From NCBI GenBank assembly GCA_017506865.1, contig JAFCMP010000541.1:186001-250000 (forward strand): a stretch of DNA of 64,000 nucleotides, written 5' to 3'. The notes under the pieces were generated by a model, which was not told the DNA's origin, did not search any database, and saw only the letters and a list, made by a program, of their open reading frames with translations. Positions 47-64,000 of this stretch are shown here, in pieces. Numbering within the stretch: the first letter of the stretch is position 1; every line of letters starts with the position of its first letter. Made by a program: the position numbers and the translations under genes. The stretch comes from Tribonema minus (Eukaryota > Sar > Xanthophyceae > Tribonematales > Tribonemataceae).

Positions 47-3000
47 GTGAGTGCAGCAGTGCTCAGCATTGCGTCATGCTTGCGCGCGGTGTTGTCGAAA
101 AGAGTGCCTTGTGGCTTCCTGAAGGGGACAAGTAGTGGCGTTATGTAGCGGACGGGTGGAGAAGGTGAGAGCCGCAGTGCTCCACCGCTGTTCACCCTCA
201 TGCGAGCGTTTTAGATATGTAAAGACCTGAAGGTGCTGACTTGATAGCGCCATGTTGATTGCGTGTTGGCATTCTGCCCACACCATGTTGAAGTATCATG
301 TTGAAGTCTCAGGCATCAGGCCCCTGCCCCTTACCTACATGCCCGTCAGCCTCAGCGCTCAGCATGTCGTGTTTATGGCAATATCAGTGAACCTGATAAC
401 GACCCTGGCTCCGTCAGTGCAAGCTCAAGCGTCGGAATCTTGCAACCCCGACCGCAGCCCTGACATCAGGCTCGGAGACTGCCCTTGGTTACGCATTAAT
501 TTTGGATGCTGATCCATTCATCAGGTGCTGCAGCGCAGCGTCCTCGCTGCTGAGCCGTACTTCGAAGTATACTTTAAGTCTTCAACTTGCGCTTGCAGCG
601 TATGACCGCATTCAACCCTCAAACCACGCTGACGCTCCTCGCGCCGCTGCCACGGCGGAGCGGCGGCGCGCTTGCCGTTGTTAGCATGCCACTGACAGCG
701 CCACGTCCTCTCCCTTCGCGTCGCCACTTCGAGCCTCGCACCGCGCGCGTCGTACTGATCAATCACCTGGCACCGCAGCGCCACGGTGAGCTTTGAAGCG
801 CCGCTCGCTGTGCGCGAGTCGCGCGGCAACGGCTGGCAGCAGCGGCGGCAACTGCTGCTGCGTGATGGCAGCTGCGCCGCCCTGTCACCCCTGCTCTCGC
901 GCTTATGTACACACCAAAGCTGAGCACTGACCTCGTCCGCGACGCTGCGCGCAGGACGCGGTCATGGCCGGGGGCTACGGCGGCGCCGCCGCCGCCGCCG
1001 CGCGCGCGTGCCGCCGCCGCCGCCGGCGCTGGACCTCGAACAGCTGAGCGCTGCCCTGCTGGACGCGCCGCCGCTACCCGTCTCCGTGTACAGCTCGAGC
1101 ACGAGCTCGTCGCTCGCGCTGAGCGGTTTCGGGGGCCAAGTCGTCTGCGGCCCCAACGGCTGCCCCGAGGGCGTAACGTCAACGCACAACGAGGACGCCT
1201 GGTACTACTCAGACGACAACTGGTTGGTTCACAAGCGCCCGGGGGCGGTGCCGTACGCGGAGGCGGCGGCGGCAGCGGCGGAGTCTGCAGGCGGTGGCGG
1301 CGACAGCGGCGAGGGGGAGGAGGAGGGGGGTGAGGCAGCGCTCAGCGCAGCGCCGCCGTCCTCATCAGCGGCGCTGCTGCTGTCGTCGCCGTCGGCCGGG
1401 GTTTCCGGCGCGGAGGGGGACGGCAGCGCTGCCGCGGTTGAGGGGGGTGACGCGGGGCCGACGCCGTGGGACTCTAGGATGGACGCGGAGCAGGCCGTGC
1501 GGCGGCGGCGGTCGCGCTTCCACGGCGACCTGGAGACGGACGTGCCGGCGTGGCGCGCCTTCGCGCAGTGGAACTACAGGCGCATGTACGCGCACACGCA
1601 GGTGCGCGCGGGGGGGGGGGGGGGGGGGGGGGGCTTTGTGCCTGGTCAGGCCGACCGGGCCGCAAGCACCTAGCTTATGTACTGTAGAGCAGGTGAAGGA
1701 TGGCGAGGGTTTGTAGCAGCGGCTGCAGCGGCGGTGACGGGGGGCGGCGATCTCGGCAACAGTCGCGGCAATGGTGGCGGGGGGCTGGCGGCGGACGCGC
1801 TGTGGCGGTTTTAACAGCAGTGTAACAGGCGCGCGTGTGTGCTCGTTTGCGTGCTCGTTATGCACGTGCAACTGCCACAGGGGGGATGCTCCTGCCAAGG
1901 CTGTCGTTCGTTGCCCCGTAACCGCACATCTGGGGGTCGCTCTCACCCGGAGCTGGCACCGCAAGGACGGTGCTGTGTTGCATACTCCACATGATGTTTT
2001 CCGGTACCGCAGGCGACGTCGCAGAGGTGGCGCTGGTGGCGATGAATACAGGTTTGAGACGTCTTTCAATATGGATGGTCAATGCTTCAGCAACATGAAC
2101 TCGAGAAATGTTCTGACGTGGCTGCTGGCTCATGTTCGCGTCCGCAGTCCCCCTTGTACGTAAAATCCCACTGCCCCCCTTTACCTTCCTGGGCGACTCA
2201 TACATCCATGCCCTGAGCTTCCTGTGCTACAATAACCCTCATCGCCTCCTACCCCCTCACTGAAACCCCCCCTTCCTCAGCGCAACCGCACCACGGAGGT
2301 ACCCCCCATCAGAGACGACATGACGCAGACGGTGCTGTTTGTGGCCGGCATGAAGACCAACGCCAGCGGCATAGCGGCCGTCGAGTTCGACCTGAGCGAT
2401 GCCATCACCACGCTGGCCGTCACGGCGGACGCGTACACCAAGTGAGTGAGTGAGTGAGTAAGTGAGTGAGTTGAGTTTGACCTGACCAATGCCATCACCA
2501 CACTGGCCGTCACGGCGGACGCGTACACCAAGTGAGTGAGTGAGTGAGTGAGTCACTGAGCAGCGGTGTGATGCGCATCACTCGCAAGTAGTGAACAAGA
2601 ACGCCCAGTGTCTGCGATAGTCGACTGCTGCTGCCTGTACGTACTTGAACTGTGAGGTCGCGCGCACCGAACAGCGTCCAGGCCGGCACGCGGAAGGCAG
2701 TCGCAGGCGGCTACAAGCTTGTTAACGTACGCCTTCAATGCCGATAACCTCATGCGTAGTCAAGCATCACGTCTATGGTCGTTCACTGCTTGCTGCGTAC
2801 GCCTGTTGCAGTACTGCCATATGGCGTTCACCTCGCAGCGTCAGCGGCACCTGCTCATGCGCGGCATCGCTATCGCTGTGTCCTCTTGATGTGAGCAGGC
2901 TCGGCGCCATGGGCATCGGCGATCTGACCTTTGCCATCACCCAGCCGCTCGTCATAGAGGCCAAGATCCCCCCGCAGGCAAGTCCCACGCGCCCGGAGTG

Positions 3001-6000
3001 CGCACGCAGGGCACCACTTAGGGTCAGGGTTAGTTTGTACGGCCCCGACGGCAGTTGCCAGGCCGCACGGACGGCGTCATTGCGCCTGAGGGCTGCGTAT
3101 AATAGTCTCTGCGCACCGGCGACGCGCTGAAGGTTGAGCGTTGCACGCTATGGCCGGGCCTTGCACATTGGACTTAACGGGGGAAGGGGTGACGGCGGGG
3201 GGCGGGCGCAGCGGGCAGGCGGGGAGGGGGAGAAGGAACACGAGGTCACGCAGGGGGTCATGCGTTTGCATCGTCCCGATGCTTTGGAGCAATGCTGCCT
3301 GTTGCGATGCCGTACTCATGCATGGTCCCGATGCTTCGGAGTAATGCTGGCAGGCGCAATGTCGCATTCATCATTCCGCAGTGACGACAGCGCTGGCGTC
3401 TCAACTGCTACTTGCTGAGGGTAGCTGCTGCTTTCAGGCAAGCGGGGACGTGTTGAGACCCTCCCTCTCAGACTGTACCCTGGCCTTGCACTCTCTCTAT
3501 GGCCAACCACCTGTCGATCTGCCCATCGCTTTCCCCTCAATTGTTAAGCAGCACGGCACTGCAGTGCTGCACTTCCACCGCGTTAAGCAGCGCTGCATCA
3601 CCACGCTGAGCACTGAGGCACTTCCGCACTGAGCAGCGTTGCACTTTCACGGCTGAGCAGCGCTGCGTTTCCCCCCTGCGCCCCCCCCCCGCGCCAGGTC
3701 ATCGCCGGCGACGTGATACTGATGCCCATCGTGACGACGACGGCGTTTCCGCGCATGCTCAAGGGCATGGGGTTACGCATTTCCGTAACTGCCAACGTGA
3801 CGAGCCCGCTCAGCGCCGTGGCGCCGGAGACAGTGAGCGGTCTGGCGGTCTCCGATGCCGCCACGTGGCGCCCCGAGGAGGCAACAGGGCTGCTCACTAC
3901 CGATGTCCAGGTATGTACACACGCGTGTGATAGAGCACGCGCGCGCTGACAGGTTCGGGGTGATGTCGTGGCGGTGCTTGCGCTGTACGACTGGCGGCAC
4001 ATCTCCCTGCGACAAACCGATGCCAGGCCGTTTCGCTGACAGCGTGACCATAAGCGGCGTTTTTTTCCTGCGACGAACTCTTTTGCTGGACACTTTTTCT
4101 AAATCGCGTGACCACAACTGGCTTTTTCCTACTGCCGTGATACTGATGCCAGAAAGTTTGCCAATGGCGGGCATGTGATTTGCGTAAAATTTGGTGCAGC
4201 ACACATCGAGATTGTCAGCATGTTCGTGACCAATGCCTGCGTTGCGCGGCAGAAAGCCATGGAGGACGTCAAGCAACTCATGGTAGTACCTGGCGGTGAG
4301 TAGCCCTTAGCAACAGCGCTACCACAGGCGCACTACGCGCAGTTCGCCGCGCTTGCTGCGCGCGTTGATGCATACATGGATCCCGTGGTGTTTGCACATG
4401 CATGGTGTCAGGGTTGAAGTTAGGGTTAGGGGCGGGATTTGGGCTAGGGTTGGACATCGGCCGTGCATGCATCTACGTTTCCGTCGGCCGATGCTGCTGC
4501 AGCTCGCGAGCGAGAGCACGCAGACTTACCTACCTTGCGATGGTTGCTAACCCTACCCCCAACCCTAAGCCCCCAAAAACTGAATCACTGCGGGACGTTT
4601 GTCCCCCCTCCGCCCCGGCTTCGCCGCAGCATACGCGGGAGAGCACGCGGTCGTACCTGGCGATCGTCGCTGACAGCGGCGCAGCTGCCCATGGAGAAAC
4701 TGTCACGGCGGACGTAACGCTGCAGGCAGCGGTCACGGGCGGCTCGCAGCACGCAGGTGGGTGTGAACGACCACGCGGTCTTGACTAAATGAAATGATTC
4801 AACTTACACAAGTCTTGACTTGTGAGTATTGGCTCCTGATTGATGAGTCTTGACTTGTGAGCGCTGATTCTTTACTCACGCGTATTGACTCGTGGTACTT
4901 TGACTCATGAGTTTTGACTCAGAAGTCTTGACAGATGAGTTCCAACTTGATTGTCAGCATGGCCCGCCTCTTCCGAAGGGCAGCGGGGACAACCGCAGTG
5001 GTGAGAGCTTAGATGGCTAGCAGCAATTGGAGCAGGCATGAACGCTATACCGTGCAGGATACCCGCCCTTGACACCCTCGGTACCTACCGTATAGCGTCC
5101 GTGGCGCATTTCCGAGGCTACACAATTAACGCTCCGCGCCTGTGCAAGCACGCTTCGCCAGCGCAGCGCCATGCCCAGTGATCCCCGCTGCGACAAGAGA
5201 AGATCGCCATCACCGCGAGCGCATTTGCGGTGTGCTGCGCTTGCGGATCTGTTGCGCGCAGGGGAGACGGACGTCATACTGCGCAGGATACATGCCCTTG
5301 ACACCCTCAATACCTACCATTTGGCGTCCATGGTGCATACCAATATCATGTTTTTCTGAACATGATCCTCTAAAACTAACTCAACAGATTAGAGTTGCCA
5401 GGTCTTTCGAGAAAATTACAACAAAATTATCTTTTGGGGCTCCGAGCTGCTGCTGCGCGGTCAACGCTCCGTGCTTGTGCTTGCGCATCTGTCGCCCGCA
5501 GGAGAGACGGACGTCACGCGGCAGCGCGTGAGGATCATGCCCAGGGGCTTCCCGGTTGAGACTCAGGGCAAGGGCGCGCTGCATCTGGACAGGTGTGTGC
5601 GCGCCTGGGCATGTCGCTTCTTGAAGTTACAGCCTTGAGAACTTCAAGTACATGCTCCTGTTTTCATTCTTGTTGTTGTGTTTCGCGCAGGTCCAACAAA
5701 GGCCACAATTGCCAATAGCAGTTGTGCCGCAGAGTAGGTGCTGCTTAGGACCTCTGCGGATTTTGAAGTAGTGAAGTTGCAGTTGTCGGCGATGCAGCAG
5801 AGGGGGACGGCACAAGCATACGCAAAACCATCTCGATCCTTGAAAGATATGCAGGCATCTGAGAAGTGCTGCATTTGCAGCTTCTCCCCAGCATGGCAAT
5901 GACAAGCTTCACTGGCCTCGGCAGGCGCTGGGGATAGGGGAGATGAAAAGATCCGCACAGTACATTTTTTAGTTGCAGCAAACCGGGATGGTCTTTGACT

Positions 6001-9000
6001 AGCACTACATACGTACAGTACATGCTTAGCAACCCATACCAAACCCTGGCATTCTGGTACACACCTGCATACCCACCTCTAATACATGATGGTACATGCA
6101 TGCACCACCATAGTGCAGGAGGCAGTGGAAGGCCTCACGCGTCCTCCGCTGTTGGCGTCACAGCAACGTCAGTGTCGACGAGGGAGGCAAATGCGTACAT
6201 GAGCACAAGTTCAAGGCATACAACACACACCTGCAAGTGAAGTTGAAGTTGATGGAAGCTTCTAGGGGTAGCACGTGACGACGCCGGGAAGCAAGCGCCA
6301 TCAACCGCCAGCATTCATCACGTGCTGCGTGGTACTTTTCGAAGTACATCTAAACTCAATTCGTATACAATGTTATTATACATACCTCTAGACAAGGCAT
6401 GTTCTTCAAGTGTATCAAGACTGAATATACTTACAAATTCTCATAAATAAGCACTTCTTATATAAATAAGCATTGCTAGAACAATCTGAATGGAATAACA
6501 ACACAAAGACAAGGACACTGAGCACTGCCTCATCTGCGCTGCCGCAGGCCTGACAGCATGGCACTCGAGCTGCCCGCCGACACCGTGGCCGGGAGCCTTG
6601 AAGTTCAAGTTGCAGTCCATGTGTCGCCTCTGCCGGATCTGACTGACACCTGCTCCAGCATCATCGACTCCTGGTTTGGGCGCAACGACTTTGCCAATAC
6701 GCTGGATGGGGCGTTTCCGACGTTGATGGCCGTCAAGGTACGTAGGTATTGCCGTCTTAAGTAATGGAAACAAAAAAAAATTGTAGAGTTCTAGGTGACA
6801 AAGTGTGGTTGGCCGCCAGCGGTTGCACCAATTCAAAAAATTGTAGAGCTCTAGGTGACAAAGTGTGGTTGGCCGCAGCGGTTGCACCAATAACCGTGGT
6901 GGCCGCTGCTGCAGTGGTGGCCGCTGCTGCAGCAGCTGGCCACGAGTCAAACCGTGCCACCATATCCGCAGGAGCCAGAAAGGCTGCCTTCTGTGTGCAA
7001 GCCTTTTAGCGTTCGTGGCATGGGTGTTCGGTATGTGAAGGTCTCAAGTGTTTGGTAGACCAGCTCCAGCTGGTAGCCCAGCACAGGTATCATACTTGAC
7101 GTGCTTCCGCGTCAGGTGCATAAGTATCTACCTACCTACCCCTGCGCGAAACGCAGGGACGCTGAACTACCAGGAGCGATAAGGTCCGAGCCCTTGGGGT
7201 CACGAGTAGGATTTCAGTTGAGCTGATGGCTGAATGTGAGGTTGGGGATAGGGTCAGGTCACACGCGTGATGCACGCGCGCCAACGCCAGCGACGCAGGA
7301 ACCACATGAACATAGACTGGAGGAGATGCGTCCACCAGCGCATTCTGAAGAATGCGCGTCTCACCCTGAGAAGTACGTACATTTGAATACGTCACTGGCG
7401 CGATCGTCAATGCGCATCGAGACGCTCTGCTGCAAGGTACATGTGGACTCAACCAGCGAGCTTGGCATCCATTATCTGGGCATTTTGCCCCCCCGCTATG
7501 CGACAAACCGACACAAAGCACGCACGTCACATCGCAGGCGTGAGCACGCCCCTGATCCCCGCCCCGCTCTCATGCTGCTTTGCAGTCTGCCGTCACACGT
7601 GCACGCGCATGCGGTACAGAGCGCGACGGAGGTGCCGATGCCTTTTGATTTTTGAACACACTCTGATGCCGATTTTCCCTGCTCTTTGCTGCCCCATCAT
7701 CAATGCCAGGGAAAGGGGGCATAAGGTTTTATCAGCGGGGAAATGGCCCATAGCCACCGGCGGCGACAAGTGACAGCCCCCCTATTAAGGCCCTGCTATT
7801 GCACATTTCCATCCATGCCTCCACTCTCACATACCATAAACAGCAACAGCTACTGCAGGATGTTGAGGAGGCCCCATGAGTGCGTGACGTCAACTATGAT
7901 GTACCGCAAACAGCAATAGCCACAGCGAGCTGGTAAACAATGGCAGGAACAAATTGTGCCTCGCGAGCTCTTCCCGTGCACGGGGTACTTGTGCGCAGTC
8001 AGTGCTCAACTGTCTCACCCCCCGCTCACCCAGCCCCCTGACCCCGCCCCCTTCGTCCCTGCTAACCTCAACTTCAACTTGAACCTGTGCTCGACGCAGT
8101 ACTTCGAAGCGCACGCCGTCGGCGCGGGCAATGTCGCGCTGCGAGAGGAGGTCGAGTCGGCGCGCGCCAGCGTCCTGTCCAGCATCCCCATCATGACGCG
8201 CCTCGAGGGCCGGGAAGGGGTGAGATGAGCGCTGCAACCCACCTCACAAGTACTTCAAGTTGAAGTAGAAGTATCCTACTTGCGGTGAACGCCACGCTCA
8301 ACAGTTGCCTCCAGCATCGCCACCATGATGCGCCTCGAAGGCGGACAAAGGGGTGATATGAGCGCTGCAACACTCATGAGTACTTCAAGTTAACGAATAC
8401 TACTTGCGATGAGCATTACGTGTCCAACACGAGGTTTTGTTAACATTGTCGTCGATGATCATGGAGTTTTTGTGCGTATATTTGTTGTGGTTGAGCGTGT
8501 GTTGTATTTTTCTGAAAGGCAGGTGAATGCAGGTTGCAAGGTGTGGTCAGTTTAGAGTAGAATGGATGAGCCTGTGGCTGCTGAGGGATACGATGCGCGC
8601 CGCAAACCTTACAATTCTTGGCTTCTGAATGAGTTTGATAGTAACAACGACTTGTTGCGTCGTGAGAAACATCACAACAACCCATGAATGAGTGCATTGG
8701 AGCATGTTGTTGCCAAGGGGCCAGACAAGCGCAGCCCATGCTGCGACAGGAGCTACGCTAGCGAGGACCACAGCCGCTCATACGGACGGGGCAAGCATCA
8801 GGACTAGGGGGTTGCAGCGCCGGAAGCAATCTAGTTCAAGCAACTTTGAAGTAACACTTGCCTCGATGCACCCAGCCTTTTCTGTGTTGCCTGCCAGCTA
8901 GGGCTCTGCTGCAGCTGCGCGCTTAGCGTCGTCGGCCTGCTCAACTCAACAACTTCAAGTGATGGCACTGCGCTGTTTCCCCAGGTCTCGCTGCGAAAAT

Positions 9001-11326: not shown

Positions 11327-11385
<59 letters not shown>

Positions 11386-14300
11386 ACACTGCTACTGCTG
11401 CTGCTGCTGCCGCTGCTGCTGCCGCTGCTGCTGCTGCTGCCGGTGCTGCTGCTGCCGCTGCTGATGCTGCTACTGCTGATTATGACGATGATGATGACGC
11501 TGGTGCTAGTGTTGCGGCGGCCGCCGCTGCCTTCCGCAAGTCGCGGTCATTGTCGGCTGGTGGTGGTGCTGCTGCTCGTTGAGGTCTGCGTCAGCCGGCA
11601 CGCTACGGCCGTTGAGCGATGTCGACAAACACTAAAAACGCACGATATCATACAAGTAGAGTTATGCAGAGCATGTGCGCGATTCTTGTTTTTCGGATCG
11701 CCGCCATGTTCCAGCCTGCCCAGCCCACGACGGTGGCACTTTTGAGCCGACACGCCAAAACAACGCGTGTAGCTCATGTGCACGCCCATTGCTTTTGTGC
11801 ATGCACAGCGTTGGAGGCCCAGGTCTTGGCAGACGGTTTTGAAGACACCGTCATCATGGCGAAAGCGGCCCTGGCCTTGCACAACGGCGGCAGGGAGTCG
11901 GCGGCGCGGGAACTGGCGCAGCGCCTGGCAAAGGCGAGCTCCAATCCTACTTACCATGCGATAAATTTGATCTTACTGTGCTGCAGAGCTACTGCGGGAC
12001 CAGTTCAGGTGCCGAGATACCTGGCGTGCGCCCTGCACCTATCGCTCGCTCGGAGTAGAGGGCACTTGGGCGCACATGATGGTTCGTTGCAACAAAATGC
12101 TTCTTTTGAGCGCACGGACGCTATGAATCGCTCGCAGTTCTGCTCTAGAGCGCCGGGACACTTTTGACGTAACAGCGGGGACGGCGCCGCAGCGTCAATC
12201 AGGGGCAGACAGGGGCATACTCGCCCGGGGAATTGGCGGTGGGGGAACTGCGCCTGTCGAAGGCCGCATTCCTAGGTACATGCGCGCCAGCCACCATGCC
12301 AGTCCATTTGAAAGTGCTGCAGAGCCAGCGTAAACAGTGTTCAGTGGCCGAGATGGAGATGATTCGTGCAGCGAATCGCGCGCGGCGGCAGGTGCTGAGC
12401 CCTACTGACCAACTGGCACGATTTGGAAAAAACACATCCGCCGCTCATGAAGTTGATGAAGTTGTGGTAAAAGCTGATGAAGTTGTGGCCCTTGGTGCAA
12501 TGCTGGTTAGCCCGACTACAGCTGTTGACCTCCATGTGCCCACCACCATATCGGCGCCGCAGACCGTGTTGTGGCGACACTTTCACGGTGTCTGAGCGCA
12601 GGCGAACTTCAGCTCGCCTGGTACCCTTGAAGATACCGGGGCATCATATCGGCAGCTGACAAACACGTTTGTCGGAAGTATTTGCCACATGCACTGGGGC
12701 ACGGCTCAGGGGCAAGCGAGCCGTTATTTTTTGCTGATACTGCTTTGACGCGACCATTTTACGCACATGTCCAATGCATGTCACGGTACATTTTTATAGT
12801 ATACTTCGAAGTATTACTACTTCTACTTTATTTTATCAAGTAGTTCCACGCAGTGCCCAATCGCAGATGTCGGACTGTCAGCTGCTCCACTTCCAGCGCA
12901 GGGGCACAGCTGCCGTGGCAGCAGTCGCGCCCGCCAACTTCAACTTGAAGCCTTGGTTCCTTCTTACTCGTGACAATCCGGCATTCCATTTTTTGGACTG
13001 CATAGGTTGACCCCACCTTAGCATTAGGGTTAGCATTAGGGTTAGCTTGTGTCAGCGCTCGGCAATGCTGAGCCGCGCGTCCCTGAACTTGCGCGCGCGC
13101 GCAGATGCAAGGCGACGACGGGGGCTTCCTGGCGCCGCCGCCGCAGGAGCCGGAGGAGGTTGCAAGCAGCTTTGGCGTCGACTCGGAGGTGAGACGTGCA
13201 GCCTGACCCTACCGTCTAACTCTAATTAATAAGCCCTAGCCTAACCATAATCCCTAACCCTAACCCCTGTTATGAGCAGGGTCAGGGTTACGACTGACGT
13301 CGCGTTTTGTGTGAGGGTCAGGACGACTTAGAGATGAGACGTGAAGCCTAACCCTATGCCCCTAACCCTCATTTCTGAGCCCTTATCTCACGCTAGCTCT
13401 ATCAGGAGCAGGGTTGCGCTACGACTAATATCACGTTTTGTGTTGAGCTTTGGCGTTGACTTGGAGGTGAGATGTGAAGCCTGACCCTACGCCTCTAACT
13501 TCAATAAACATGCCCTAGCCTAACCCTAACCTCTAACCCTAACCCCCTGTTATGAGCAGGGTCAGGGTTACGACTGATGTCATGTTTTGTGTGAGGGTCA
13601 TGACGACTCAGACGCGAGACGTGACGCCTAACCCTATGTTCCTAACCCTAATTCCTAACGCCTAACCTCACCCTAACTCTATTAGGAGCAGGGGTAGGGT
13701 TGTGACTAATGTCACCTTTTGTGGGAGGGTAGGTGGCGGTCAGGATGAATCGGAGGCGAGACGTGAAGCCTAACCCTATGCCCTTAGCCCGTAATTTCTG
13801 AGTCCTAACCTCACTCTAACCCTGCCAGGAGGCAGGAGGCAGGGTTAGGGTTACGACTATATATATGTCACGTTTTGTGTGAGGGTTGCTGGCGGTCAGG
13901 CCGACTAAGAGGCGATACGTGAGGCCTGACCTAATCCTATGCCCCTAACCCTAGCTTCTAAGTCCTGACCTAACTCTAACCACCTACCAGGAGCAAGGTT
14001 AGGGCTGAGAGTGATGTCACGTTTTGTGTAAGGGTTGCTGGCGGTCAGGACGACTTGGAGGCGAGAGGTGAAGCCGAACCTTATGCCCCTAAACCTAATT
14101 TCTAAGCCCTAACCTAACCCTCACCCCTTACTAGGAGCAGGTTTAGGGCTAAGACTGGTGTCACGTTTTGAGTAAGGGTCGCTGCGGCCAGGACGACTCG
14201 GATGCGAGACGTGAAGCCTCCCTCTATGCCCATAACCGTAATTCATAACGCCTAACCTCACCCTAACTCTATTAGGAGCAGGGGTAGGGTTATGGCCAAT

Positions 14301-53069: not shown

Positions 53070-55384
53070 CCCCCCCCCCCCCACACACACACACACCAAT
53101 TCTGACGAAGGCCAATGTGGGGGCTCTCTCGAAGTGCCTTGCAACCAGTCCATGTGACTCAGGCAACTGCGCTAGCATGTGTCACGCAATCATGGGTTGC
53201 AATGATGACGGCACGCCATTGCCATACAGGATGTTCTACCACCATCTGCAGCGGGCCTATTTGGGCAGTGATGAGGTTCAAGAGCAAACAGACCTTGCTG
53301 AACATAGCCCGTTGAAGGCTCATTTCGCGTGTCGTCAGGTGTCGTGAGACGTTCAGCCAAACGGCAGTTGGACAGCGTGTGCACTGCAAACCCAGATGGA
53401 GGCGCTCTCAACTTGCGCCCTAGCTGTCACCACTGCCTCCGGATCGAGTCCTTAGGTGCGAGTCCTCGCTGCGTGACCGATGTGATGTTCACCAAGTGGT
53501 GTGCGTAACCGTCTGATTTTATTCATTACTGTAGGTAGCATCACAACGGACCGAATGGTACATTCACACGAATTACTGCACGATCTGCGATTTAAAAAGA
53601 GCTGGTGTTTTTGTTGTGGCTTTGGTGTTGCATTGAATGGATGTGTTCATCAGTCTGTTTGCTCTGCCCCATACCGATACTACCAGTGCGTCATAGCAGG
53701 CACTACAACAACAGCCGCGCTGTTGTGTGCCTTTCACAGCAGGCGTTTAGGACATTGCCGCATTATGAATGTCAATAGGCCATTGCATATGCTGCAAATG
53801 TGACTTGTGGCCATAGCGCTGGCTGATCAGCAAGACCTACTGTTGAGCCATGTCTCAGTGATATGTTGCATATGCGGCAGGTGCAACTGGCGTGCAGCGC
53901 ATCATTTAGGTGTCTGGACTGATGGGACAGCACCTCAATGGCCAAACATGCTGTGTTGGCTGCATGTTTGCGCCAGACATATGCTTGAGGCCCTCATGAT
54001 CCAAAAACCAAATCCGTGCAACAAAATGCCTGCCGTCTGCGCGCAAGCATTCAATACACGTGTTCTGCTGCCACTCTTATCTTATTACAAAGTTATTAGC
54101 TGCTCTCTGGGCGTCGCACACCGATGCAATGATGTCGACAGCGACAAAATTGCATGGCCATGCCCAATCAGTCATGGAAAAAAGTGAATGAGGCTCTCCA
54201 GTGTTATGTCTTGCATACACATGCCATGAGATCTAGATCAAACAAGCAAGGGGACACACATGATCTATGCAAGATGGTGTGAGCCATATCTTAACCTACC
54301 AGGGGCTTGAAGAGGAAGGAACCAGCAGCAGTCAGCACACAGACCAGTAGGATGAGAGATGCTTGGCCAGGGATGCTCACAGGGAGATGTCTCTCTGCAA
54401 GCCAGGTGATTTTACTTCAGCTCAGACCCCCCAGCGTGACCCCGTATCTTCAGGTCAACGTCACTGGTACTTCAATACCTATTAGTAATCCGCACCCTGG
54501 CCATAACACCAGCACTAGGCATTGACCGCTGGGAACTCTTGCATTCCACCTGAGCAGACTCGTCACGATACTGCACGATTTGCTCAGTGTTCTTCCGGCT
54601 CAACCTGACACCGAGTGGACATCTTGGTGCGCCCTTCTTCAATTTTTCAGAATGATCGACAGCTGTGACCTCCTTCACTTCGGCGAAGTCTATATCATTC
54701 GTGTTCTGGCAAGGAGCGTGGCGGCACCAAACAGGCAACCGCTAGGAGCCCAAAGGCTTTGTCCAAGTTTCAGCGGCCGTGGGAATTCTCCTAGCCTTTC
54801 AGTGATCTCAAAGCACTAGAAGGCCGTGGCTCCTGCCGAGGCACTAGTGAAGTGGGAGATTGCGCAGGCGGCAATCAAGAGATGAAACACACGTTGTCAA
54901 GATGCCAGTGCCCTGCATTGGCACGAACTGGCCATGTGGATCAGCACCATACCATGGCGTTGCAGGTAACACCGACGTGACAGCGGGGTGCTCGCCCACC
55001 GGAGTACCGTCACTGGATAGCGGAAACTGAGCCGTTATCGCTGCCATGGGTTTCAATGTGACCTTCTTGGCTGAGTGCAGCTTGGGGATAAGATTTCTTA
55101 TCCCCAAGAGTGCAGTACCATGAGTATGGCGCTGACTTACATGGCCAGCCGGTGCCTACGCAGGGCACTGGCAACGGGTGTTTCATCTGTGATCAGCGCC
55201 TGCGGAGTTCCCCATTTCAGTAGTGCACAAGGCCACGGGCACCACAGTTGAGGTTGCGCGTCACCTGTTGCAGATTGAGGAAATAGTGAGACAACGTGAA
55301 GGAGCAGGACAGGGGGACGTGTGCTTACAGCGGCGCTGCGCTGATCAAGTCATCGTTGCAGCTGGCTCAGGGGGGAGCAGGGGG
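53070..55384. other. Intergenic between methyltransferase and XRN-like genes
   Basis: A CA microsatellite is at about 53082-53096. Longer open frames at 53501-53803 and 53807-54187 (plus) and 54472-54738 (minus) have no recognisable motif. I see no splice-linked partners for them, so I do not call genes. Upstream of the XRN-like start codon an open frame continues to 55223, which leaves an alternative start. Confidence 0.5.
55081..55108. repeat. 28-base palindrome (hairpin), intergenic copy
   Basis: CTTGGGGATAAGATTTCTTA followed by TCCCCAAG forms a near-perfect stem with a small loop. Its arms match the intronic hairpin at 33232-33258, which suggests a small mobile or regulatory hairpin and not chance. 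Confidence 0.6.
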
Positions 55385-58300
55385 ATGGGATGTGGTGCTG
55401 CCACTGCCACGCTGGCCTGCCTCATGGCACTGCAGCTCTGCGAGGCCGGCATTCAGGGCTTTTCAAAGTGGTTCAAGGGCGTCTTCCATGATAGCGTGAT
55501 GGCGGTGCAGCCAGGACAGAGGGATCAGTTCGATCATGTCTGCTTCGACATGAACCAGGTGGGTACCAGGCCCCACAGCGATGGTGCATGTTGCACTTCG
55601 CGCTGCAATTCGTTGTCGAGCAGTGTTTGAGCGAGCAGAGTACGGCAACTGGCAATGCTTTGTACCTGCATCCGCTACTGCAATGCATTTGTGGTGCAAA
55701 TGTGTGTGCGTGCCTGTGCACGCGGGATCTTCAAGAATCATTTTCTGACACAGGTTCGCAATGCAATGTCTGGCAGCCCTGTCCAGTGCAGTCTGTTAGC
55801 TGCTGCCGCTGCTGCTGCCTGCAACATGAGCATATTCATAGGCCTATAGCTCCAGCGACTGACTTCCCTTCAAGTCTTGACAAAAATGTCATAATTATGT
55901 CCGGCGGAACATGATCATTGTCAGCCATTTCTGAGCTTTGTCACATGCTATTTGGCTGCAACTTCAACCGTTTTTGGAGCGGCGCAGATCCTGCACGTGG
56001 CGGTCAGGAGGTCAGCGAATGAGGAGCAGGCCATCGCCAGGACGTTCACGGAGGTAACCACACCTGCCCTTCTCAGCCTTGCTCTGACCATCGTGACCCA
56101 GTACCCAGCTATGACTGTATGGGACGGCTGCATCGATCGTCAAGGCTGCGTGTGGTCATAGTGTCGCACTTGTACACCCGCTGCACATGCATGTTCTCTG
56201 ATGGTCGATGAAACCGCGTCTTGTTGTTTGAACGGCGCTTGCTGATGGATGTCTGCCATAAGTACGTACATCTGCGGCTGCTGAGCATTGCCCTAGGCAG
56301 GCATATTTGATACAGCGCGCGTGCTGCAGATGCTTGCAGTTCAGACAAGCAGACGGGGTAGTGCTGATCATGCGCTTCCAGCATGCGCGGCCCTTCATTC
56401 AACGCTGTTGGCGCGTTGTCAGTGATCCGCAGACGCATGCCCATAACTTGCGGAATGATCTGCAGTGCGAGCAGCACGCGTAGTGCCATGCTCGCCACGG
56501 CAGACATCGTCTGCGCTTATTGCCGCAGTTCTGTGTACATATGTACATACAGCAATGCTGCCCTCCAACGCGCTGGAGCCACAGCGGAGTGTGATGGCCG
56601 TACTCATTGCTGCGCTACCTGAGCAACGCTGCTGCCTCCATGCGCTCATCCACGGTTGAATGGCAGCACTGCAATACACTGTCCTGCACGCCATCAGCAA
56701 ACCATCTCCGGCGCTGCGCCTACCGCACTGCAGATAAGCCGGGTGCTGACAACGCCAGAGTGGTCATCGCCGTTCAATGGCAGCGCTCTGCTAGCACGAG
56801 TCTCGTAACTCGTACACCTCAGCACGCACTCGTGCCCTGCGCTGTGCCCACCGCGCCGCAGATAAGCCAGGTGCTCAAGACGCTGGAGCCGCGGCGCAGC
56901 GTGGTCTTCGCGTTCGACGGCAGCGCGCCGCTGGCGAAGCTGCTGACGCAGCGCGCGCGCCGCGAGGGTGGGCGCCGCGCCGAGCGCTACCAGATGAGCG
57001 CACTGAACATCACGCCTGGGACGGACTTTATGCGGAGCGCTGCTGAGGCGATGCGCTACTACGCGTACACGCGGCTGCCGGGCGGGACGGTGAGGCACGC
57101 ACAGAGCCGACTAGAGTCTGGGTCTGAGTCATTATTCATGGGCCCTTACAGTATGCATACGCCAAAGTGCTAAACAGTCATCACAACTTTACGCCGGGGA
57201 CGGACTCCATGCGGAGCACTGCAGAGGCGATGCGCTTCTACGCGTAGGCGCGGCTGCCGGGCGGGACGGTGAGTCGCGCACGGAGTCGAATAGAGTCTGG
57301 GTCTGGGTTGTCGATCTACACTAGACAGAGAGTGTTGGAGTATTGTGGCCACTCACACTACGCATACGCCAGAGTGCTTGTATATCAGATCAGTACAACC
57401 ACACGCTGGGGACGGACTTCATGCGGAGCGCTGCTGAGGCCATGCGGTACCACGGGTACATGCGGCTGGCGGGTAGGATGGTGAGATACAGGCTTACTTC
57501 AACGTGCGTGTGCCTTTAATCAGTATAGTAATGCTTCGAAGTATGTATACAGGAGTATGTGTTCATGACGACATCACGCCGGGGACGGACTTCATGCGGA
57601 GAGCTGCTGAGGCGATGCGCTACTACGCGTACACGCGGCTGCCGGACGGGACGGTGAGGCGCATGAAGCTAAATAGAGTCTGGGTCCGAGTCATTGTCCT
57701 GCACTCCTGCAGGCAGAGCATTGCGGCCCCTCGCAGTACGCATACGTCGGAGTGCTTGTACTTCAATATGAGTTTGTTACAATATCACGTCGGGAACGGA
57801 CTTCGTGCGGCGCGCTTCTGTGCAAATGTCACAGCTCGCGGCTTTTTCTGCGCTTCTCTCGGCAACGTCAACAGCAAGCGTCAAAGTTCGGCCCCGGCGA
57901 CAAATGTATGTATTAGAAGCCTATATGCAAGCGTCACAGCTTGCGACTTTTTCCCGCACTCCGCTTGTCAACTTCAACAGCAAGTGTGGAAGTACTATAT
58001 ATGCACTCTAGAGTCTACTTCTATATAGTATATAGAAGTATACACATTGTCACACCGTGCGATTTCTGCACTCCTCTTGTCAACTTCAACAGCAAGCGTC
58101 GAAGTTCGGCCCCGGCGACAAGGTCTGGCTGGACCTCGGTGAGCCTGGCGCCCCCCAGTGGACAGGTCCATGGGCGATACAGGGCAGGAAGGGGGCGGAT
58201 GACCTCGTGCTGACGCACCACAAGGGGGGCGCCAGGAAGGTGGTGAGCGCTGCGCTGGTGCGGCCGTACAGGGGGGACCCTCCACCAGGGCCTAGGGGGA

Positions 58301-61300
58301 CGCGCGAGGGGGTGAGGTACGTTTGTATGACGTATTCGACATAGATCATAAATTATAATGTCTGCGTCCAGCTTCTGGGAGCGGTTTGTGAGTACTGGCA
58401 ACGCTCTGGGCTGCTTGTAGTGACACTTTGAAGAGGTACAGGTCTGCTCGAATGAACTACATGGGGGAGTTCAGCCGTGAACTTTGAAGGGGGGGTGCCA
58501 GGAAGGTGGTGAGCGCTGCGCTGGTGCGGCCGTACAGGGGGGACCCCCCACCTAGGCCTAGGGGGACGCGTGAGGGGGTGAGGTACGTATGTATGGCGTG
58601 TTTCACACTGATGTGTAGTTGATCATTTGAATGTATGCGCCCAGCTTCGTGCGTCTTGCCGGCAATGGGCTGCTCGTTGTGTGGGGAGGGTCAGATCTGC
58701 TCGAATGAACTGTCACATGGGGGAGTTCAGCCGTGAACTTTGAAGCGTGAGGAGGTTTCAGATCTACTCGAATGAACTATTCAGCTGTGAGGTTTAAAGG
58801 GGGGGCGCCAGGAAGGTGGTGAGCGCTGCCCTGGTGCGGCCGTACAGGGGGGATCCCCCACCAGGGCATAGGGGGACGCGCAAGGGGGTGACGTACGCGT
58901 GTATGGCGTGTTTCACTCTGCCATAGGTCGCGCGGCAGAGATGTTTTTGGCGAGCACCGGCGGTCGTCGTGGATCGTGCCACCGCGTTGCGACCGACGCG
59001 CGCACTCATCACGTCCAAGGCATGCGCTACAGGCGCGGCAGGCTGTTCGCAGGGAGCGCTGACCGTTGCGCGACGCGCAGCGCTCAGCAACACATCGTGC
59101 AAGCGGCATGCGGCCGCAGCGCGTCGCCGCGCACTCATCCGCGTTGCCGCAGGTCGCGTGTGTTTGCTCTCTGCGAAACTCGGCCGGCGTCGTGCATCAT
59201 GCTTCTGCGCTGCGACTCTTTAACGAGCACCTTGTTCTCGAGCGCACCGCTCTGCAGTACGCGAGCCCACGCTTCTCGTGACAGGCCAGTCAGTGCATTG
59301 CGACTCGCGCCTTCTCCGAACTTCGACAGGTATTACATGGGCACAGCAGATGTGCTAGGGGAGGGGGAGCTTAAAATTCTGGACTGGGCGCACCTGGCAG
59401 GCAGGAGGCCACGTTCTCTAGCGGCGCTGCGCACTGCGTCCGCGCCCCATAGACACTGCCATGCCATAATCATCACGCCAAAAGTATCAATCACGCCAAT
59501 CAAGCTGCGACTCACGCGTGCGCTGACAGGTACTACGTGAGCGGAGCGGACGTACCGGGGGAGGGGGAGCTGAAGATTCTGGACTGGGCGCACCTGGCGG
59601 TGGCGCATGGCGGCGAGGAGAGCGTGGTGATCGTGGGCGGCGACGCGGATCTGGTGCTGCAGGGGCTGGCGCTGAGCAAGGTGATGCGCGACGACGCTCC
59701 GCTTTCAATCTTGAAGTTACTCTTGAAATTGAAGTACACAATCTGAAGTACACCAATCGATACTTCAAGCAGCAGTAGAACCCAGGGAGGTGGGCAATGT
59801 GTCGTGCATCGTGGCGAGAGCAGAGCAGAGCGGTTGCGGCAGAAAGAGGGCGGGGGGGGGGGTCACAGTGTGGAGTATGACTCATTTGGCTGCAGGGCGT
59901 ATTTGGTGGTGCATACACACAGCGTAGCTTGCGCCATACCCTGCGTTGCAATTCCTGGCCATGCCAGTTTTCTGTGGCTAGCATGCTCTAGGTGCTTTGA
60001 GGAGCAGTGTTGCTCAAATAACAGTGCTGGCACCAAGCTGGCAATGTAAACGCCTTGCATCGAAGGCACCTTCCAAGAATTCGACGTTTGAAGGCTCAGT
60101 TCAGGAGGTGCTGAAGCATAAACGCCATCATATGAAGCCACGCTGGCGGTGCGCATTGTCAGCACCCCACCGCGCGTCTTGAAGCTGAAGCTCTGCGCTA
60201 CGCTTGTACACTGCTATTTTGTGCATGTCAGGAACCGCGTGCACCATTATACTTTGGATATGATGACACTGTTTGCCTCGTGGCCAATGACTGCAGCAGC
60301 GGCGACCACGGTTATTGGTGGAAGGCACTTGCGGCTAACCATCCCTTGTCACCTAGAGCTCTACAATCTTTTGATTCATTTCCATCCAGCACTGGCTGTG
60401 CACATTGTCAGCAGTGCCCGATGCAGCTCGCAGCTGAAGTACTGCACTGTTCAATGCTGCTGATGCTGCCGTCGTTGCATGCAGGTCAAGAACCTGTTCG
60501 TCTACGCCTCGGAGCTCAAGCGCAGCGGACGCATCGTATCCCTCTGGCAGGTGCGTCCTCTCATATTCGATACTTGATGTATTATCATATTTCTCACTCA
60601 GAGTGGCAACGCTCGGGCCTGTGGTGTGACTGCTCAAGTAACCCTCAGTAACGTCACACCGCTACTCCAACTGCATTTGAAGTTGCCCGTTGCCTTGCAC
60701 TTGTATCTTACTCGGCTGCTGCACCGGCAAGCTGGAATACAGATGCAGGTAGTACAGCCAGCAGATGTGTGACGTGCCTGTGGTTATCCTTGACCGCTGG
60801 CGTGGCCTCAGTAAATGACACGTATACACAGATGCGTCTGGTGTTCTCAGTCAGGCACATGGCTGCGCACCTTTGGTCAGCTGTGATACCTTCAGGAAGT
60901 TACCTCGTTAAGTGGCTTTGAACAGTCAACAGCTCTTTGGAGCATGTCAGAACTCCGGCGCTGCCTGATTTTGAGCAGGACAAACCGGGAGACACAGTTC
61001 AGGCGGCCAGTCTGAGAAGAGCATTCGGATATGCAATGTGCAGACAAATCCACTATCAAGCCTGCAACAACGTGCACTCTGAGCATTGCTGCTGCTGTTG
61101 CCGAGCCAAAAGAGCCAGACAACTGCAGGCCAGTTTGTGAACTTACAGCTGAGCATTGATGCTACTCAATGGTGCGCTGCAAGACTCCAGGCAGCTGCAG
61201 GCCATATTAGTAGCACAATCCTGCAAGTTAAGCATCACTGCCGCAGCTCTCCGCTGTGCCGCACGGCAGACTTGAGTACATTCTGCCACTGCATACCTAC

Positions 61301-64000
61301 CATCTTTTGTTTTGAAGTAACGCCAGTGAGCTGACTGTTGCTGCTGCGCATCGATGCACCGCAGGTCACACGGCAGCTGGAGGCGATGTTCCCCGGCGAG
61401 AGCGGCGGCATTCGCAACGACCTCATCTTCCTGCTGGTCCTCAACGGCAATGACTACCTGCCGAAGGTGACGTGCCTGAAGTGCTCACACAACCGGGGCT
61501 GTTCCGCCTGTTCTGAGCGCTAAAGCTGTTGCGCTGCACTGCGCTGCTGCCAACAAGGCGCAGAAAAGGAGCGGGCGCGGCCCTGCTCACCCTTACCCTA
61601 ACCCTAAGGTCAACATCATTAAAGTTCGAACGCCTCAAGGAAGGTCAGAGATTTGTTGCAACGCCATAACAAGACGTGCATGTCAGCAACACTGGAAGGT
61701 AAAATCTTCATCAAGGGCATGCAAACAATATATACTTCCATATGTATACTTCCAATGAATAAGCGGCTACGAATGAATGCGTTCGCCGATGCAGTACCTG
61801 TGCGTGTGCGCTAGAAGGTGGTGAGGTGCAGCGCTGCTTGACAACACCGTCGTACGTTTACTAGCAAAGTGCATAATGATGACTACATCAAACCATCCTC
61901 CAAGTAGGAGCTATATGCATGAGAACTCACTCAGCAGTGACGACTGCGGCCGCTGCCACGCTGACCTGTGCAGGTGCGCGGCATGAGCTTTGGGCAAACG
62001 ACTTCAACTAGCCCTTGCCACATCGTCAATAATCAGAAGAAAAAATCACTAATCCTCACTGCATTATGAATTACAATGAAATGTTACATTTTGTGGTTAA
62101 AGTGAACATTGTAAAATCAGCATCAAACCCACACAACTGCGATCGATGCGATGCTCTGTGCAGGTGCGCGGCGTGAGCTTCGGGCGCTGCTTCCGGCACT
62201 ACTGCGCGGCCAAAGCGGCGCCCGGCGGCCAGGGCAGCTTCATCATCGACTCCGAACGGCAGCGCTTCAACTGGCCCTTCCTGCTGCGCTTCCTCAAGTT
62301 CGCGACGATGGGCGCCGCGGTGAGGCGCACCATAAGTTGAAGTTTTCAGTGCATTGTTGAAGTTTGTGCACTCGTGGTGACATTCCGGCGGTGGTGTGGC
62401 GCCGGCCTACTTGCAAGGTAGGTAGGTATGACCTGCGATTGCAGTCCGTACGAGCACCTCGAAATTTCTTTTGGACTAATGCGATGCCAAAATTGTGTCT
62501 GCGCAGCCCCGAGCAGCAACGCTCGTCAAGGGGAACTGGGCATCAGCCGATGGGGTCAGCCCGGTGGCGAAGATGTGACGCCCCTCAGTCATGAGCAACC
62601 TCAAGTTGCAGCGCTGCGAACCCCTTACATGGACCCCAAGAGATGCCGTGCATGTGTATTTGTTGCGTCTCCCTTTGTGACTGAGCCGTCCTACAGCAGC
62701 GACGGGCTAGAGCCCTGGCCACTTTGTGCAGCAAACGGTGGAAACCGGCATGAGCCTACCTGGAGCCGCTAATTCCTTTTGCTCGCTGCTCTTGGAGTCA
62801 TAACCCAGTCCCCATCATCAATACCATCCGCATTTAATACTTGCTCTGTCCTCTGCTTGTGCGTGTGGCTATCAGCCGCTCTCGGCGGATTTCATAGCCA
62901 AAATGCAGTTCTGGGCCATCAGCAGGCGTTCACTCAGCCCAACACACTCCTCTTGGAGCGCCCAACACTTCTGCCCCACCAAAACTTGGTCTCATCTTAG
63001 CCTCTCACGATTGGCTACCTGCGCTCATGCTTGTCCTCTCCTGTGCTCTCGCAACTGCTTGCGCGTGTGGCTATCAGCCGCCCTCGGCAGAGTCCTAAGA
63101 TGCAACTCGTGGCCGAAAGCAGGCGTTGACTCAGCCAAATGCACCCCTCTAGGAGCTCTCATCAATTTTTTCCCCGTCTCAACCTGCTCTAATCTTATCC
63201 TTTTCACAATCGGCTTGTCCTCTCCTGTGCTCTCGCAACTGTTTGCGCGTGTGGCTAGCAGCCGCCCTCGGCGGAATTGATGGCTCGGCAGATGGCGCTA
63301 CAGGGACCCACGCCGGCGCAGTGGGTCAACGCTGCAGTGCAGAAGAAGGTTATTCGGGGGGGGCGGGTAAGTACGCATAGATACTCCTTATTATGGTGCT
63401 TCAGGAAACTATACTTTGAAATGTGCCGGCGCATTGGGTCAACGCTGCGGTGCAGAAGAAGCTGATTCGTGGGGGGCAGGTAAGTACGTACGCATGGATA
63501 CTCCTTATTATAGTGCTTCAGGAATCTATACTCTGAAATGTGCCGGCGCAGTGGGTCAACGCCGCGGTGCAGAAAAAGCGCATTCGCGGGGGACGGGTAA
63601 GTTCGCATATATGCTCCTCATCATGGTGATTCAGGAATCTATATATGCTTCTTATTGTAGTTAGTAGAGCAGAAGAAGCTCATTCGTGGGGGACGGGGAC
63701 GTCCGCATATATGCTCCTTATTGTGATGCTTCAGGAACCAATGTACTTCTTAAGTATGCTTCTAAATATGGTGCAGAAGCAGCTGATTCGTGGGGGATGG
63801 GCACGTACGCATAGATACTCCTTATTATGGTGCTTCAGGAATCTATACTTTGAATATATGCTCACTGAACCTCAAATGATAATGATGTTGCTGAAGTACT
63901 GTGCAGTACGCCTTGGCGTGAGTGCGGCTGGCACCTCCTCAGGATTGCTTTCATGTCAGCCGAGGCAGGTGCTGTTTTCATCACAGCAACAATAAGCAGG
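55385..64000 (+). CDS. XRN-type 5'-3' exoribonuclease with integrase-like inserted domain, 3'-incomplete
   Basis: Exons: 55385-55558, 55988-56053, 56862-57089, 58093-58316, 59530-59680, 60485-60550, 61365-61466, 62164-62319, 63262-63366, continuing past the window. The 424 codons seen stay in frame. After a leader (MGCGAATATLACLMALQLCE) comes GIQGFSKWF, then the acidic active-site motifs in family order: FDMNQ (D55), FAFDGSAPLAK (D99), VPGEGELK (E242, E244), GGDADLV (D269, D271) and NGNDYLP (D333). Family knowledge: XRN enzymes degrade 5'-monophosphate RNA processively. Exon 58093-58316 (residues 157-231) reads KFGPGDKVWLDLG, WTGPWAIQGR and AALVRPYRGDPP, the pattern of a retroelement integrase C-terminal domain. 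Leaving it out would break the frame. The start could lie further upstream (55223). Confidence 0.82.
56545..56800 (+). repeat. Two acceptor echoes before XRN-like exon 3
   Basis: The real exon starts at 56862 (ATAAGCCAGGTGCTCAAGAC). A copy after an acceptor at 56732-56734 reads ATAAGCCGGGTGCTGACAAC and continues with a diverged GTGGTC-TCGCCGTTC. An older copy at 56560-56610 keeps CGCTGGAGCCACAGCGGAGT. Confidence 0.8.
57193..57820 (+). repeat. Four donor echoes of XRN-like exon 3
   Basis: The true donor is at 57090. Copies of the last ~80 exon bases with donors end at 57270, 57481 and 57654, spaced 180, 211 and 173 bp. A truncated one without donor lies at 57783-57820. Typical shared text is GGGACGGACTTCATGCGGAG. 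The copy ending at 57270 carries an in-frame stop (TACGCGTAG), and the copy ending at 57654 would still be open. Confidence 0.9.
57825..58092 (+). repeat. Two acceptor echoes before the integrase-like exon
   Basis: Units starting near 57825 and 57931, with the real one near 58048, share GTCACA-C-TGCGA, TTTCTGC-CT and AACTTCAACAGCAAG. The first copy extends to AAGTTCGGCCCCGGCGACAA, eight codons into the exon. Period is about 105-117 bp. Confidence 0.85.
58488..58922 (+). repeat. Two donor echoes of the integrase-like exon, ~310-bp period
   Basis: The exon end and intron start (true donor 58317) recur at 58488-58612 and 58798-58922. They share GCCAGGAAGGTGGTGAGCGC, GTGCGGCCGTACAGGGGGGA and, past the donor, TGTATGGCGTGTTTCAC. 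The intronic part TGGGGGAGTTCAGCCGTGAA is also repeated. Confidence 0.9.
59300..59405 (+). repeat. Acceptor echo before XRN-like exon 5
   Basis: The acceptor CTTCGACAG at 59323-59331 is followed by GTATTACATGGGCACAGCAG, ending in AAAATTCTGGACTGGGCGCA. This mirrors the true exon at 59530 (YYVSGADVPGEGELKILDWA). The copy preserves the catalytic GEGELK codons but then diverges. Confidence 0.88.
60250..60395 (-). repeat. Dispersed repeat, inverted copy 5
   Basis: The reverse complement carries GGAAATGAATC, GTAGAGCTCTAGGTGACAAG, ACCAATAACCGTGGTCGCCG and GGCCACGAGGCAAACAGTG. It is the same element as at 6757, 16700 and 17040, here in the intron before XRN-like exon 6. Confidence 0.75.
61965..62000 (+). 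repeat. Short acceptor echo before XRN-like exon 8
   Basis: CTGTGCAGGTGCGCGGCATG then AGCTTTGGGC copies the acceptor and first ~20 bases of exon 62164-62319. The distance between copies is about 190 bp. Confidence 0.8.
62850..63105 (+). repeat. Two acceptor echoes before XRN-like exon 9
   Basis: GCGTGTGGCTATCAG followed by CCGCTCTCGGCGGA (about 62861-62890) and CCGCCCTCGGCAGA (about 63062-63092) copy the real junction at 63247-63275. Spacing is about 190-200 bp. Flanking intron words (GCTCTCGCAACTG, CTTGTCCTCTCCTG) repeat as well. Confidence 0.85.
63425..63815 (+). repeat. Four donor echoes of XRN-like exon 9
   Basis: The true donor is at 63367. Near copies end at donors 63480 and 63597 (spacing 113 and 117). 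Shorter ones follow at about 63668-63710 and 63772-63810, where the donor GT is lost. Shared text is GTGGGTCAACGC and GTGCAGAAGAAGC, then ATTCG. Intronic TACTCCTTATTATGGTGCTT is part of the unit. Confidence 0.9.

What the first reader, a model, noticed from the sequence alone, without database searches (positions are those of the whole stretch)
2361..63815. Splice-junction echoes: introns grow by tandem copies of exon-intron boundaries
Seen directly: about 25 junctions in all five intron-containing genes have 1 to 8 direct copies of the junction inside the neighbouring intron. Acceptor copies are always upstream of the true exon start and donor copies always downstream of the true exon end. 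Copies erode with truncation and stops. In every gene the outermost junctions give a continuous reading frame. Inference: recurrent tandem duplication across splice sites lengthens introns here and leaves decoy splice sites. I know of intron gain from tandem AGGT duplications, but not of such a pervasive, graded, both-ended pattern. It could also feed alternative splicing.
Basis: partly seen in the sequence, partly recalled or inferred. Interest (0 to 1): 0.88.

Follow-up and report, generated by a model that had tools for sequence, protein, structure and literature searches.

The report
Splice-junction echo arrays in algal introns
In this yellow-green alga many genes carry decaying head-to-tail copies of their own exon edges inside the neighbouring introns, a pattern known from a few amphioxus genes; it lengthens introns, leaves decoy splice sites and has slipped into published gene models.

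Summary
The window lies in a 158-Mb assembly that I identify as Tribonema minus (Xanthophyceae). In four curated genes 21 of 21 local direct-repeat arrays span or touch a splice junction, on 21 of 44 junctions. All 19 donor echoes lie downstream and all 13 acceptor echoes upstream of the true site. In 20 other 10-kb stretches, 60 of 73 genic non-exonic arrays involve an HMM-predicted junction, against 17 expected from uniform placement; a simulation gives junction arrays only a 1.37-fold detection advantage. The 'outermost site is used' rule follows from tandem duplication plus selection and is not a separate discovery. Echoes decay about as unconstrained copies of a constrained exon should. 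A transcript-derived protein supports outermost splicing in one gene; two of two deposited models compared contain residues read from echo arrays. The kind is in print: 'mirage' minisatellites of amphioxus, cause unclear. New here are a distant lineage, the abundance and a measured junction bias. Best reading: recurrent local tandem duplication with an excess of breakpoints in or beside exons, filtered by selection on exons. The cause of the excess is inferred.

The parts
2380..2560 (+). Gene A (A2M-like) donor echo, unit 90 bp, true donor 2441/2442
5047..5516 (+). Gene A acceptor echo cluster, true acceptor 5501/5502 (best pair intronic, second pair spans the junction)
8178..8391 (+). Gene A donor echo, true donor 8219/8220
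13168..14477 (+). Donor echo array of about 142-bp units at HMM exon 13105-13188 (exon weakly supported)
17602..17821 (+). Donor echo at HMM exon 17507-17642 (exon weakly supported)
40292..40642 (+). Gene B (M12 metallopeptidase-like) donor echo, true donor 40378/40379
40788..41514 (+). Gene B acceptor echo array, touches true acceptor 41420/41421
41653..42404 (+). Gene B donor echo array, 4 echoes, true donor 41742/41743
43054..43389 (+). Gene B acceptor echo, true acceptor 43307/43308; an older copy near 42818 was seen by eye
44009..44519 (+). Gene B acceptor echo array, 3 echoes, true acceptor 44479/44480
44577..44778 (+). Gene B donor echo, unit 115 bp, true donor 44624/44625
49433..49876 (+). 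Gene C (methyltransferase) acceptor echo array, true acceptor 49781/49782
49986..50453 (+). Gene C donor echo array, true donor 50042/50043
50953..51755 (+). Gene C acceptor echo array, at least 4 echoes, true acceptor 51686/51687
51893..52465 (+). Gene C donor echo array, true donor 52001/52002
56708..56935 (+). Gene D (XRN_N exonuclease) acceptor echo, true acceptor 56861/56862
57006..57820 (+). Gene D donor echo array, 3 echoes, true donor 57089/57090
57821..58121 (+). Gene D acceptor echo array, true acceptor 58092/58093
58224..58920 (+). Gene D donor echo array, 266-bp unit, true donor 58316/58317
59325..59598 (+). Gene D acceptor echo, touches true acceptor 59529/59530
61940..62185 (+). 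Gene D acceptor echo, true acceptor 62163/62164
62842..63284 (+). Gene D acceptor echo array, acceptor-like sites ending at 62875 and 63077, true acceptor 63261/63262 (scored at 63276)
63312..63854 (+). Gene D donor echo array, unit about 113-117 bp, true donor 63366/63367
48145..53087 (+). Gene C, five exons 48145-48453, 49782-50042, 50777-50924, 51687-52001 and 52930 to the stop; 390-aa protein, 98% identical over 100% to transcript-derived P0001

Best explanation
These are 'mirage'-type arrays. Short stretches (units mostly 70-270 bp) are duplicated head to tail. When a unit spans one exon-intron boundary the protein is unchanged as long as the outer, original splice site stays in use, so the extra copy ends up inside the intron and decays without constraint. 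Some arrays grow to several copies. Exon-only duplications are removed unless in frame. Shown: arrays, direction, excess at junctions, decay pattern. Supported for one gene by a transcript-derived protein: outermost splicing. Inferred: the excess arises because duplication breakpoints fall preferentially in or beside exons; exon definition by the spliceosome lets decoys be ignored.
For: Window: 21 of 21 arrays in four curated genes at junctions, 5.3-7.7 expected. Twenty other stretches: junction 60, intron-only 13, exon-only 4, intergenic 8; 17.2 junction arrays expected of 73 with introns as they stand. Exon-only units are multiples of 3 in 4 of 4. Direct clusters 85, inverted 1; 225 of 232 direct pairs lie within 1.5 kb. 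Mismatch by codon position 6.8, 6.1 and 16.6% over 36 pairs, as for a constrained exon and an unconstrained echo. Exon-echo identity 0.887 vs echo-echo 0.838. With exons masked and intronic identity of 85% or more, junction 13 to intron-only 3 (intergenic 2); at 90%, 7 to 0 (intergenic 2). Simulated detection 0.707 for junction, 0.516 for intron-only. Junctions are under a repeat copy in 88 of 291 cases, deep-intron positions in 11%, intergenic 9%, mid-exon 6%. P0001 has no echo residues.
Against: No RNA reads were available. Gene structures in the 20 stretches come from my own small HMM, which sometimes calls echoes exons; in one gene aligned with four homologues, two echo-bearing introns were clean and two had an extra 3 residues (4 to 6 residues from the junction) and 13 residues. 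The stretches were not a random draw. No collapsed-intron expectation was computed for them. Third-position mismatch is 2.5 times that of positions 1 and 2, above the twofold ceiling of the simplest neutral model. Curated introns with and without echoes are equally long. Arrays at predicted CDS ends, 10 of 52, do not separate exon-linked from splice-linked bias. Young pairs may be regrowth inside old arrays rather than new seeds.
Confidence: 0.82

Rival explanations
1. No junction bias: duplications are uniform, exon-only ones are purged, and junction arrays merely stay recognisable longer because the exon copy is constrained.
For: It explains direction, the outermost rule and the multiples of 3. 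Masking exons loses 6 of 21 window arrays and 24 of 60 sample arrays, and arrays kept by masking include echo-echo pairs of multi-copy arrays.
Against: Simulated detection advantage is only 1.37-fold; 13 to 3 at intronic identity of 85% or more; deep-intron and intergenic coverage is about a third of junction coverage.
Confidence: 0.12
2. Echoes are kept by selection, as spare or regulatory splice sites or as alternative exons.
For: GT kept in 17 of 19 donor echoes and AG in 11 of 13 acceptor echoes, one of the 13 scored at a misplaced acceptor. Deposited models P0002 and P0121 read echo-array sequence. Third-position excess could be weak coding constraint.
Against: Retention is close to what about 10% divergence per echo gives by hand arithmetic; echo-echo divergence fits neutrality; P0001 and homologues P0122 and P0124 lack the extra residues.
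Confidence: 0.08
3. The introns were themselves born by tandem duplication of exonic AGGT segments.
For: Tandem duplication has been active in this genome.
Against: That model puts a copy of the upstream exon end against the downstream exon. None of the 32 echoes sits at the opposite splice site, and echoes carry intron sequence beyond the junction.
Confidence: 0.04
4. Assembly artefact.
For: Tandem arrays are a classic assembly trouble.
Against: The 60-base exon parts of echoes differ from the exon by 2 to 32%, and junction arrays occur in 13 of the 20 fetched stretches. Reads were not seen.
Confidence: 0.02

Closest known systems
'Mirage' minisatellites of amphioxus (Adh3, globins BflGb6 and BflGb9)
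   Different: There a handful of loci, with haplotype length variation and homogenised inner copies; here a distant lineage, 19 to 30% of predicted junctions depending on the rule (43 of 222 exon sides; 88 of 291 junctions), a measured excess over intron-only duplications, and no sign of homogenisation in the 7 arrays tested.
Intron gain by tandem genomic duplication (AGGT model)
   Same: Local tandem duplication with splice-like sites in the copies (PMC2891723 and PMC3443670, passages read).
   Different: Here the duplicated unit contains an existing junction and lies in an existing intron; no new intron is needed.
Introner elements
   Same: Sequences linked to intron spread (recalled; PMC7789003 seen only in search listings).
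   Different: Gene C echoes are local to their own gene, not a dispersed family.

Membership tests
Mirage minisatellites | Tandem unit spans an exon-intron boundary | tested here: met
   21 of 21 curated arrays span (19) or touch (2) a junction
Mirage minisatellites | Both 5' and 3' boundaries can be duplicated | tested here: met
   31 donor and 31 acceptor echoes among 130 internal exons, 19 curated and 111 HMM
Mirage minisatellites | Authentic boundary still used; splicing regular | tested here: inconclusive
   Supported for gene C by P0001 and for gene B by homologues P0122 and P0124; no RNA reads
Mirage minisatellites | Many copies retain GT or AG | tested here: met
   17 of 19 and 11 of 13 (one acceptor misplaced)
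Mirage minisatellites | Length instability between haplotypes | not testable with these tools
   one assembly held
Mirage minisatellites | Accessory, reported for one locus: inner copies homogenised | tested here: not met
   echo-echo identity 0.838 (23 pairs) below exon-echo 0.887 (21 pairs), 7 arrays
AGGT tandem-duplication introns | Copy of upstream exon end abuts downstream exon | tested here: not met
   no echo of the 32 lies at the opposite splice site
Introners | Similar elements in introns of many genes | tested here: not met
   tested by protein search for gene C only: echo matches at its own locus, other matches 26-43% identical

The most novel reading that the evidence does not exclude
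Tribonema has an exon- or splice-linked duplication process that makes junction-spanning tandem duplication a main source of intron length (repeat copies cover 32% of curated intron bases and junction-array copies 15% of HMM intron bases), so its genome is a natural laboratory for how introns grow and how splicing ignores decoys.
Probability: 0.4. Interest if true: 0.75.

Novelty: new variant of a known kind. Interest (0 to 1): 0.55.

Why it matters
From the one paper I could read, mirages were a curiosity of a few amphioxus genes with no known cause. A genome in which about a fifth to a third of predicted junctions are affected gives enough cases to measure where duplications start, how fast they are lost, and whether decoy sites are ever used. 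It also warns that gene models in such genomes can contain false protein segments read from echo arrays (2 of 2 deposited models compared).

Tried and rejected
A dispersed element as source: gene C echoes are local. A seeding motif: CTTCAA/TTGAAG is only mildly denser in array intron (3.13 vs 2.06 per kb). Inverted copies: 1 cluster against 85 in the stretches, 1 in the window. Breakpoint microhomology: only 3 clean pairs, no conclusion. Bias at CDS ends as a test of exon-linked against splice-linked origin: 10 of 52, unreliable HMM ends. The first HMM setting merged genes; the second was used. Coupling of both ends: an exon with one echo tends to have the other (16 seen, 7.4 expected), but introns show it too (15 vs 8.6), so gene-level differences may explain it. 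The low-complexity filter dropped no cluster in the window and 1 in the stretches. Rfam at gathering scores gave nothing. The metallopeptidase search showed many paralogous matches, not used.

Paper searches. The amphioxus paper came up., for Tribonema minus genome papers, listed none on its gene structure by title; those papers were not opened. Of PMC4039745 only passages were seen.

Full report
WHAT IT IS IN. The window is C538:186001-250000 of a 158-Mb assembly in 554 contigs. The joined methyltransferase (gene C) matches a deposited Tribonema minus protein, P0002, on a contig of 632,972 bases, the length of C538, and a transcript-derived protein of unnamed organism, P0001, at 98% over its whole length. 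I therefore take the organism to be T. minus, Xanthophyceae, and P0001 to be from a Tribonema. Gene A has a weak A2M match (PF00207), B is M12 metallopeptidase-like (PF13688), D has an XRN_N match (PF03159) (PDB exonucleases).

CHECK OF THE OBSERVATION. I curated 25 exons in the four genes from open frames, homologues and splice sites. In gene A curation stops at 8219, because later exons are weakly supported. Local self-BLAST gives 28 clusters in the window. All 21 inside the curated genes span (19) or touch (2) a junction, on 21 of 44 junctions; in one, 5047-5516, the best pair is intronic and only the second spans the junction. Outside, 2 more cover HMM donors, 1 is inside an HMM intron only, 1 is a coding repeat array and 3 are unassigned. 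All 32 echoes measured lie on the intron side expected: 19 donor, 13 acceptor. Two curated sites were off: an acceptor scored at 63276 is at 63261/63262, and a donor without echo, scored at 2979, is at 2977/2978. Neither changes a count except the AG tally.

WHAT CHANCE GIVES. If a duplication may fall anywhere that leaves the exons intact, units of these lengths would be junction-spanning in 5.3 of 21 cases, or 7.7 when the arrays are first removed from the introns; all 21 has P about 4e-10 in the second case. The outermost rule itself carries no information: it is what survives.

INDEPENDENT SAMPLE. I took 20 stretches of 10 kb at 90-kb steps on four contigs that earlier hits had named, so they are not a random draw of the genome. 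A small hidden Markov gene finder, trained on the window and these stretches, gave median exon 155 and median intron 548 bp and 39 genes in the stretches. Of 85 arrays, 49 span a predicted junction by at least 10 bp in their best pair, 26.6 expected by moving them at random. By a broader rule 60 are junction arrays, 13 intron-only, 4 exon-only and 8 intergenic; of the 73 in the first two classes 17.2 would be junction arrays by geometry, with introns as they stand. Any array occurs in 15 of 20 stretches, a junction array in 13. All 4 exon-only units are multiples of three, the mark of selection on frame. Nine predicted proteins or pieces, from 7 of the 20 stretches, were given to Pfam; 8 of 9 matched a family.

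DETECTION BIAS. Because the exon copy is constrained, junction arrays stay visible longer. With exons masked, 15 of 21 window arrays and 36 of 60 sample arrays are still found; echo-echo pairs of multi-copy arrays help there. At intronic identity of at least 85% the sample shows 13 junction to 3 intron-only, at 90% 7 to 0, with 2 intergenic at each level. A simulation of 700 single duplications of each class gives detection of 0.707 and 0.516, ratio 1.37. Even multiplied in, the window expectation stays below half of 21 (hand arithmetic). So the excess is real, though part of the young pairs may be regrowth inside old arrays.

HOW THE COPIES AGE. Over 36 exon-echo pairs mismatch is 6.8, 6.1 and 16.6% at codon positions 1, 2 and 3, with 97 synonymous, 87 non-synonymous and 2 stop changes (pairs share history). 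Exon-echo identity is 0.887 and echo-echo 0.838 in 7 multi-copy arrays. Both roughly fit an echo free of constraint copied from a constrained exon; the third-position figure is above the twofold ceiling of the simplest model. Echoes still show GT in 17 of 19 and AG in 11 of 13, so decoys remain.

ARE DECOYS USED. P0001 contains none of the echoes and follows the outermost sites of gene C. The deposited model P0002 reads from an echo acceptor through the intron piece behind it into the true exon (51554-51709). P0121, for gene B, adds three segments that lie in echo arrays: 40525-40566, 41242-41420 and 44130-44180, the last mostly the intronic part of a unit. Homologues P0122 and P0124 lack them, by eye. 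Whether RNA evidence stood behind those models I cannot tell; I take them for prediction errors. In the ABC1-kinase gene of L024, four homologues align without gap at two echo-bearing introns; near two others all four lack 3 residues (4 to 6 residues from the junction) and 13 residues, perhaps HMM misplacement.

SCALE. Predicted junctions are covered by a repeat copy in 88 of 291 cases, deep-intron positions in 11%, intergenic 9%, mid-exon 6%. By a stricter rule 43 of 222 sides of 111 HMM internal exons have an echo, and 19 of 38 sides of 19 curated ones. Local repeat copies cover 32% of curated intron bases; junction-array copies cover 15% of HMM intron bases. Over 168 introns those with an echo have a median of 879 bp against 431; the 23 curated ones show no difference, 808 against 809. 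Donor and acceptor echoes are equally common, 31 and 31 among 130 internal exons.

MECHANISM. Local head-to-tail duplication is clear: 85 direct to 1 inverted clusters, 225 of 232 direct pairs within 1.5 kb. Why junctions? Selection removes exon-only events and keeps junction and intron events, which alone does not give the excess. I favour more breakpoints in or beside exons; selection for echoes is less likely. No motif or microhomology result settles it.

COMPARISON. A 2010 paper on amphioxus globins (PMC3087553; section 16 read) describes the same kind, 'mirages', named at Adh3 by a 2002 paper that I could not read: both boundaries, units of 150-160 bp in globins, AG/GT often kept, splicing regular, mechanism unclear. 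What is added here is a remote lineage, abundance, a tested bias, and no sign of homogenisation. Hence a new variant of a known kind.

Mended against the calls: the number of stretches with arrays (15 and 13, not 17), the GC-AG donor place, the description of P0121's extra segments, the curated intron lengths, and the share of junctions. Confidence in the best explanation moved from 0.83 to 0.82 and in selection for echoes from 0.07 to 0.08, for the curated intron lengths and the third-position figure.

Noticed in passing
P0002 and P0121 (deposited models of genes C and B): Both deposited Tribonema minus proteins that I compared contain residues read from echo arrays, so public models of this genome may hold more false segments of this kind.
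   Followed up: partly
window 20816-21000: A repeat of about 184 bp with about 40 further near-full matches across the genome at 93-96% identity; the count is a lower bound.
   Followed up: no
window 13018-13676, 33737-33784, 42501-42550, 43245-43298: Short telomere-like CCCTAA/TTAGGG tracts; the motif is among the commonest intron heptamers.
   Followed up: no
introns generally: The heptamers ACTTCAA and TTGAAGT are very common in predicted introns (131 and 93 counts); meaning unknown.
   Followed up: partly
window 58093-58316: An exon between conserved XRN parts whose product looks, by eye and recall only, like a retroelement integrase tail; its phase fits both neighbours.
   Followed up: no
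window 46758-47993, minus strand: A long open frame of 81-bp (27-residue) repeats that read, by eye, like ankyrin repeats; an in-frame coding tandem array.
   Followed up: no
L023: A GC-rich stretch, 83% predicted coding in long exons, with a product that reads by eye like a reverse transcriptase; no local arrays found.
   Followed up: no
window 2978: Probable GC-AG intron: donor GCAAGT right after exon 2899-2977.
   Followed up: no
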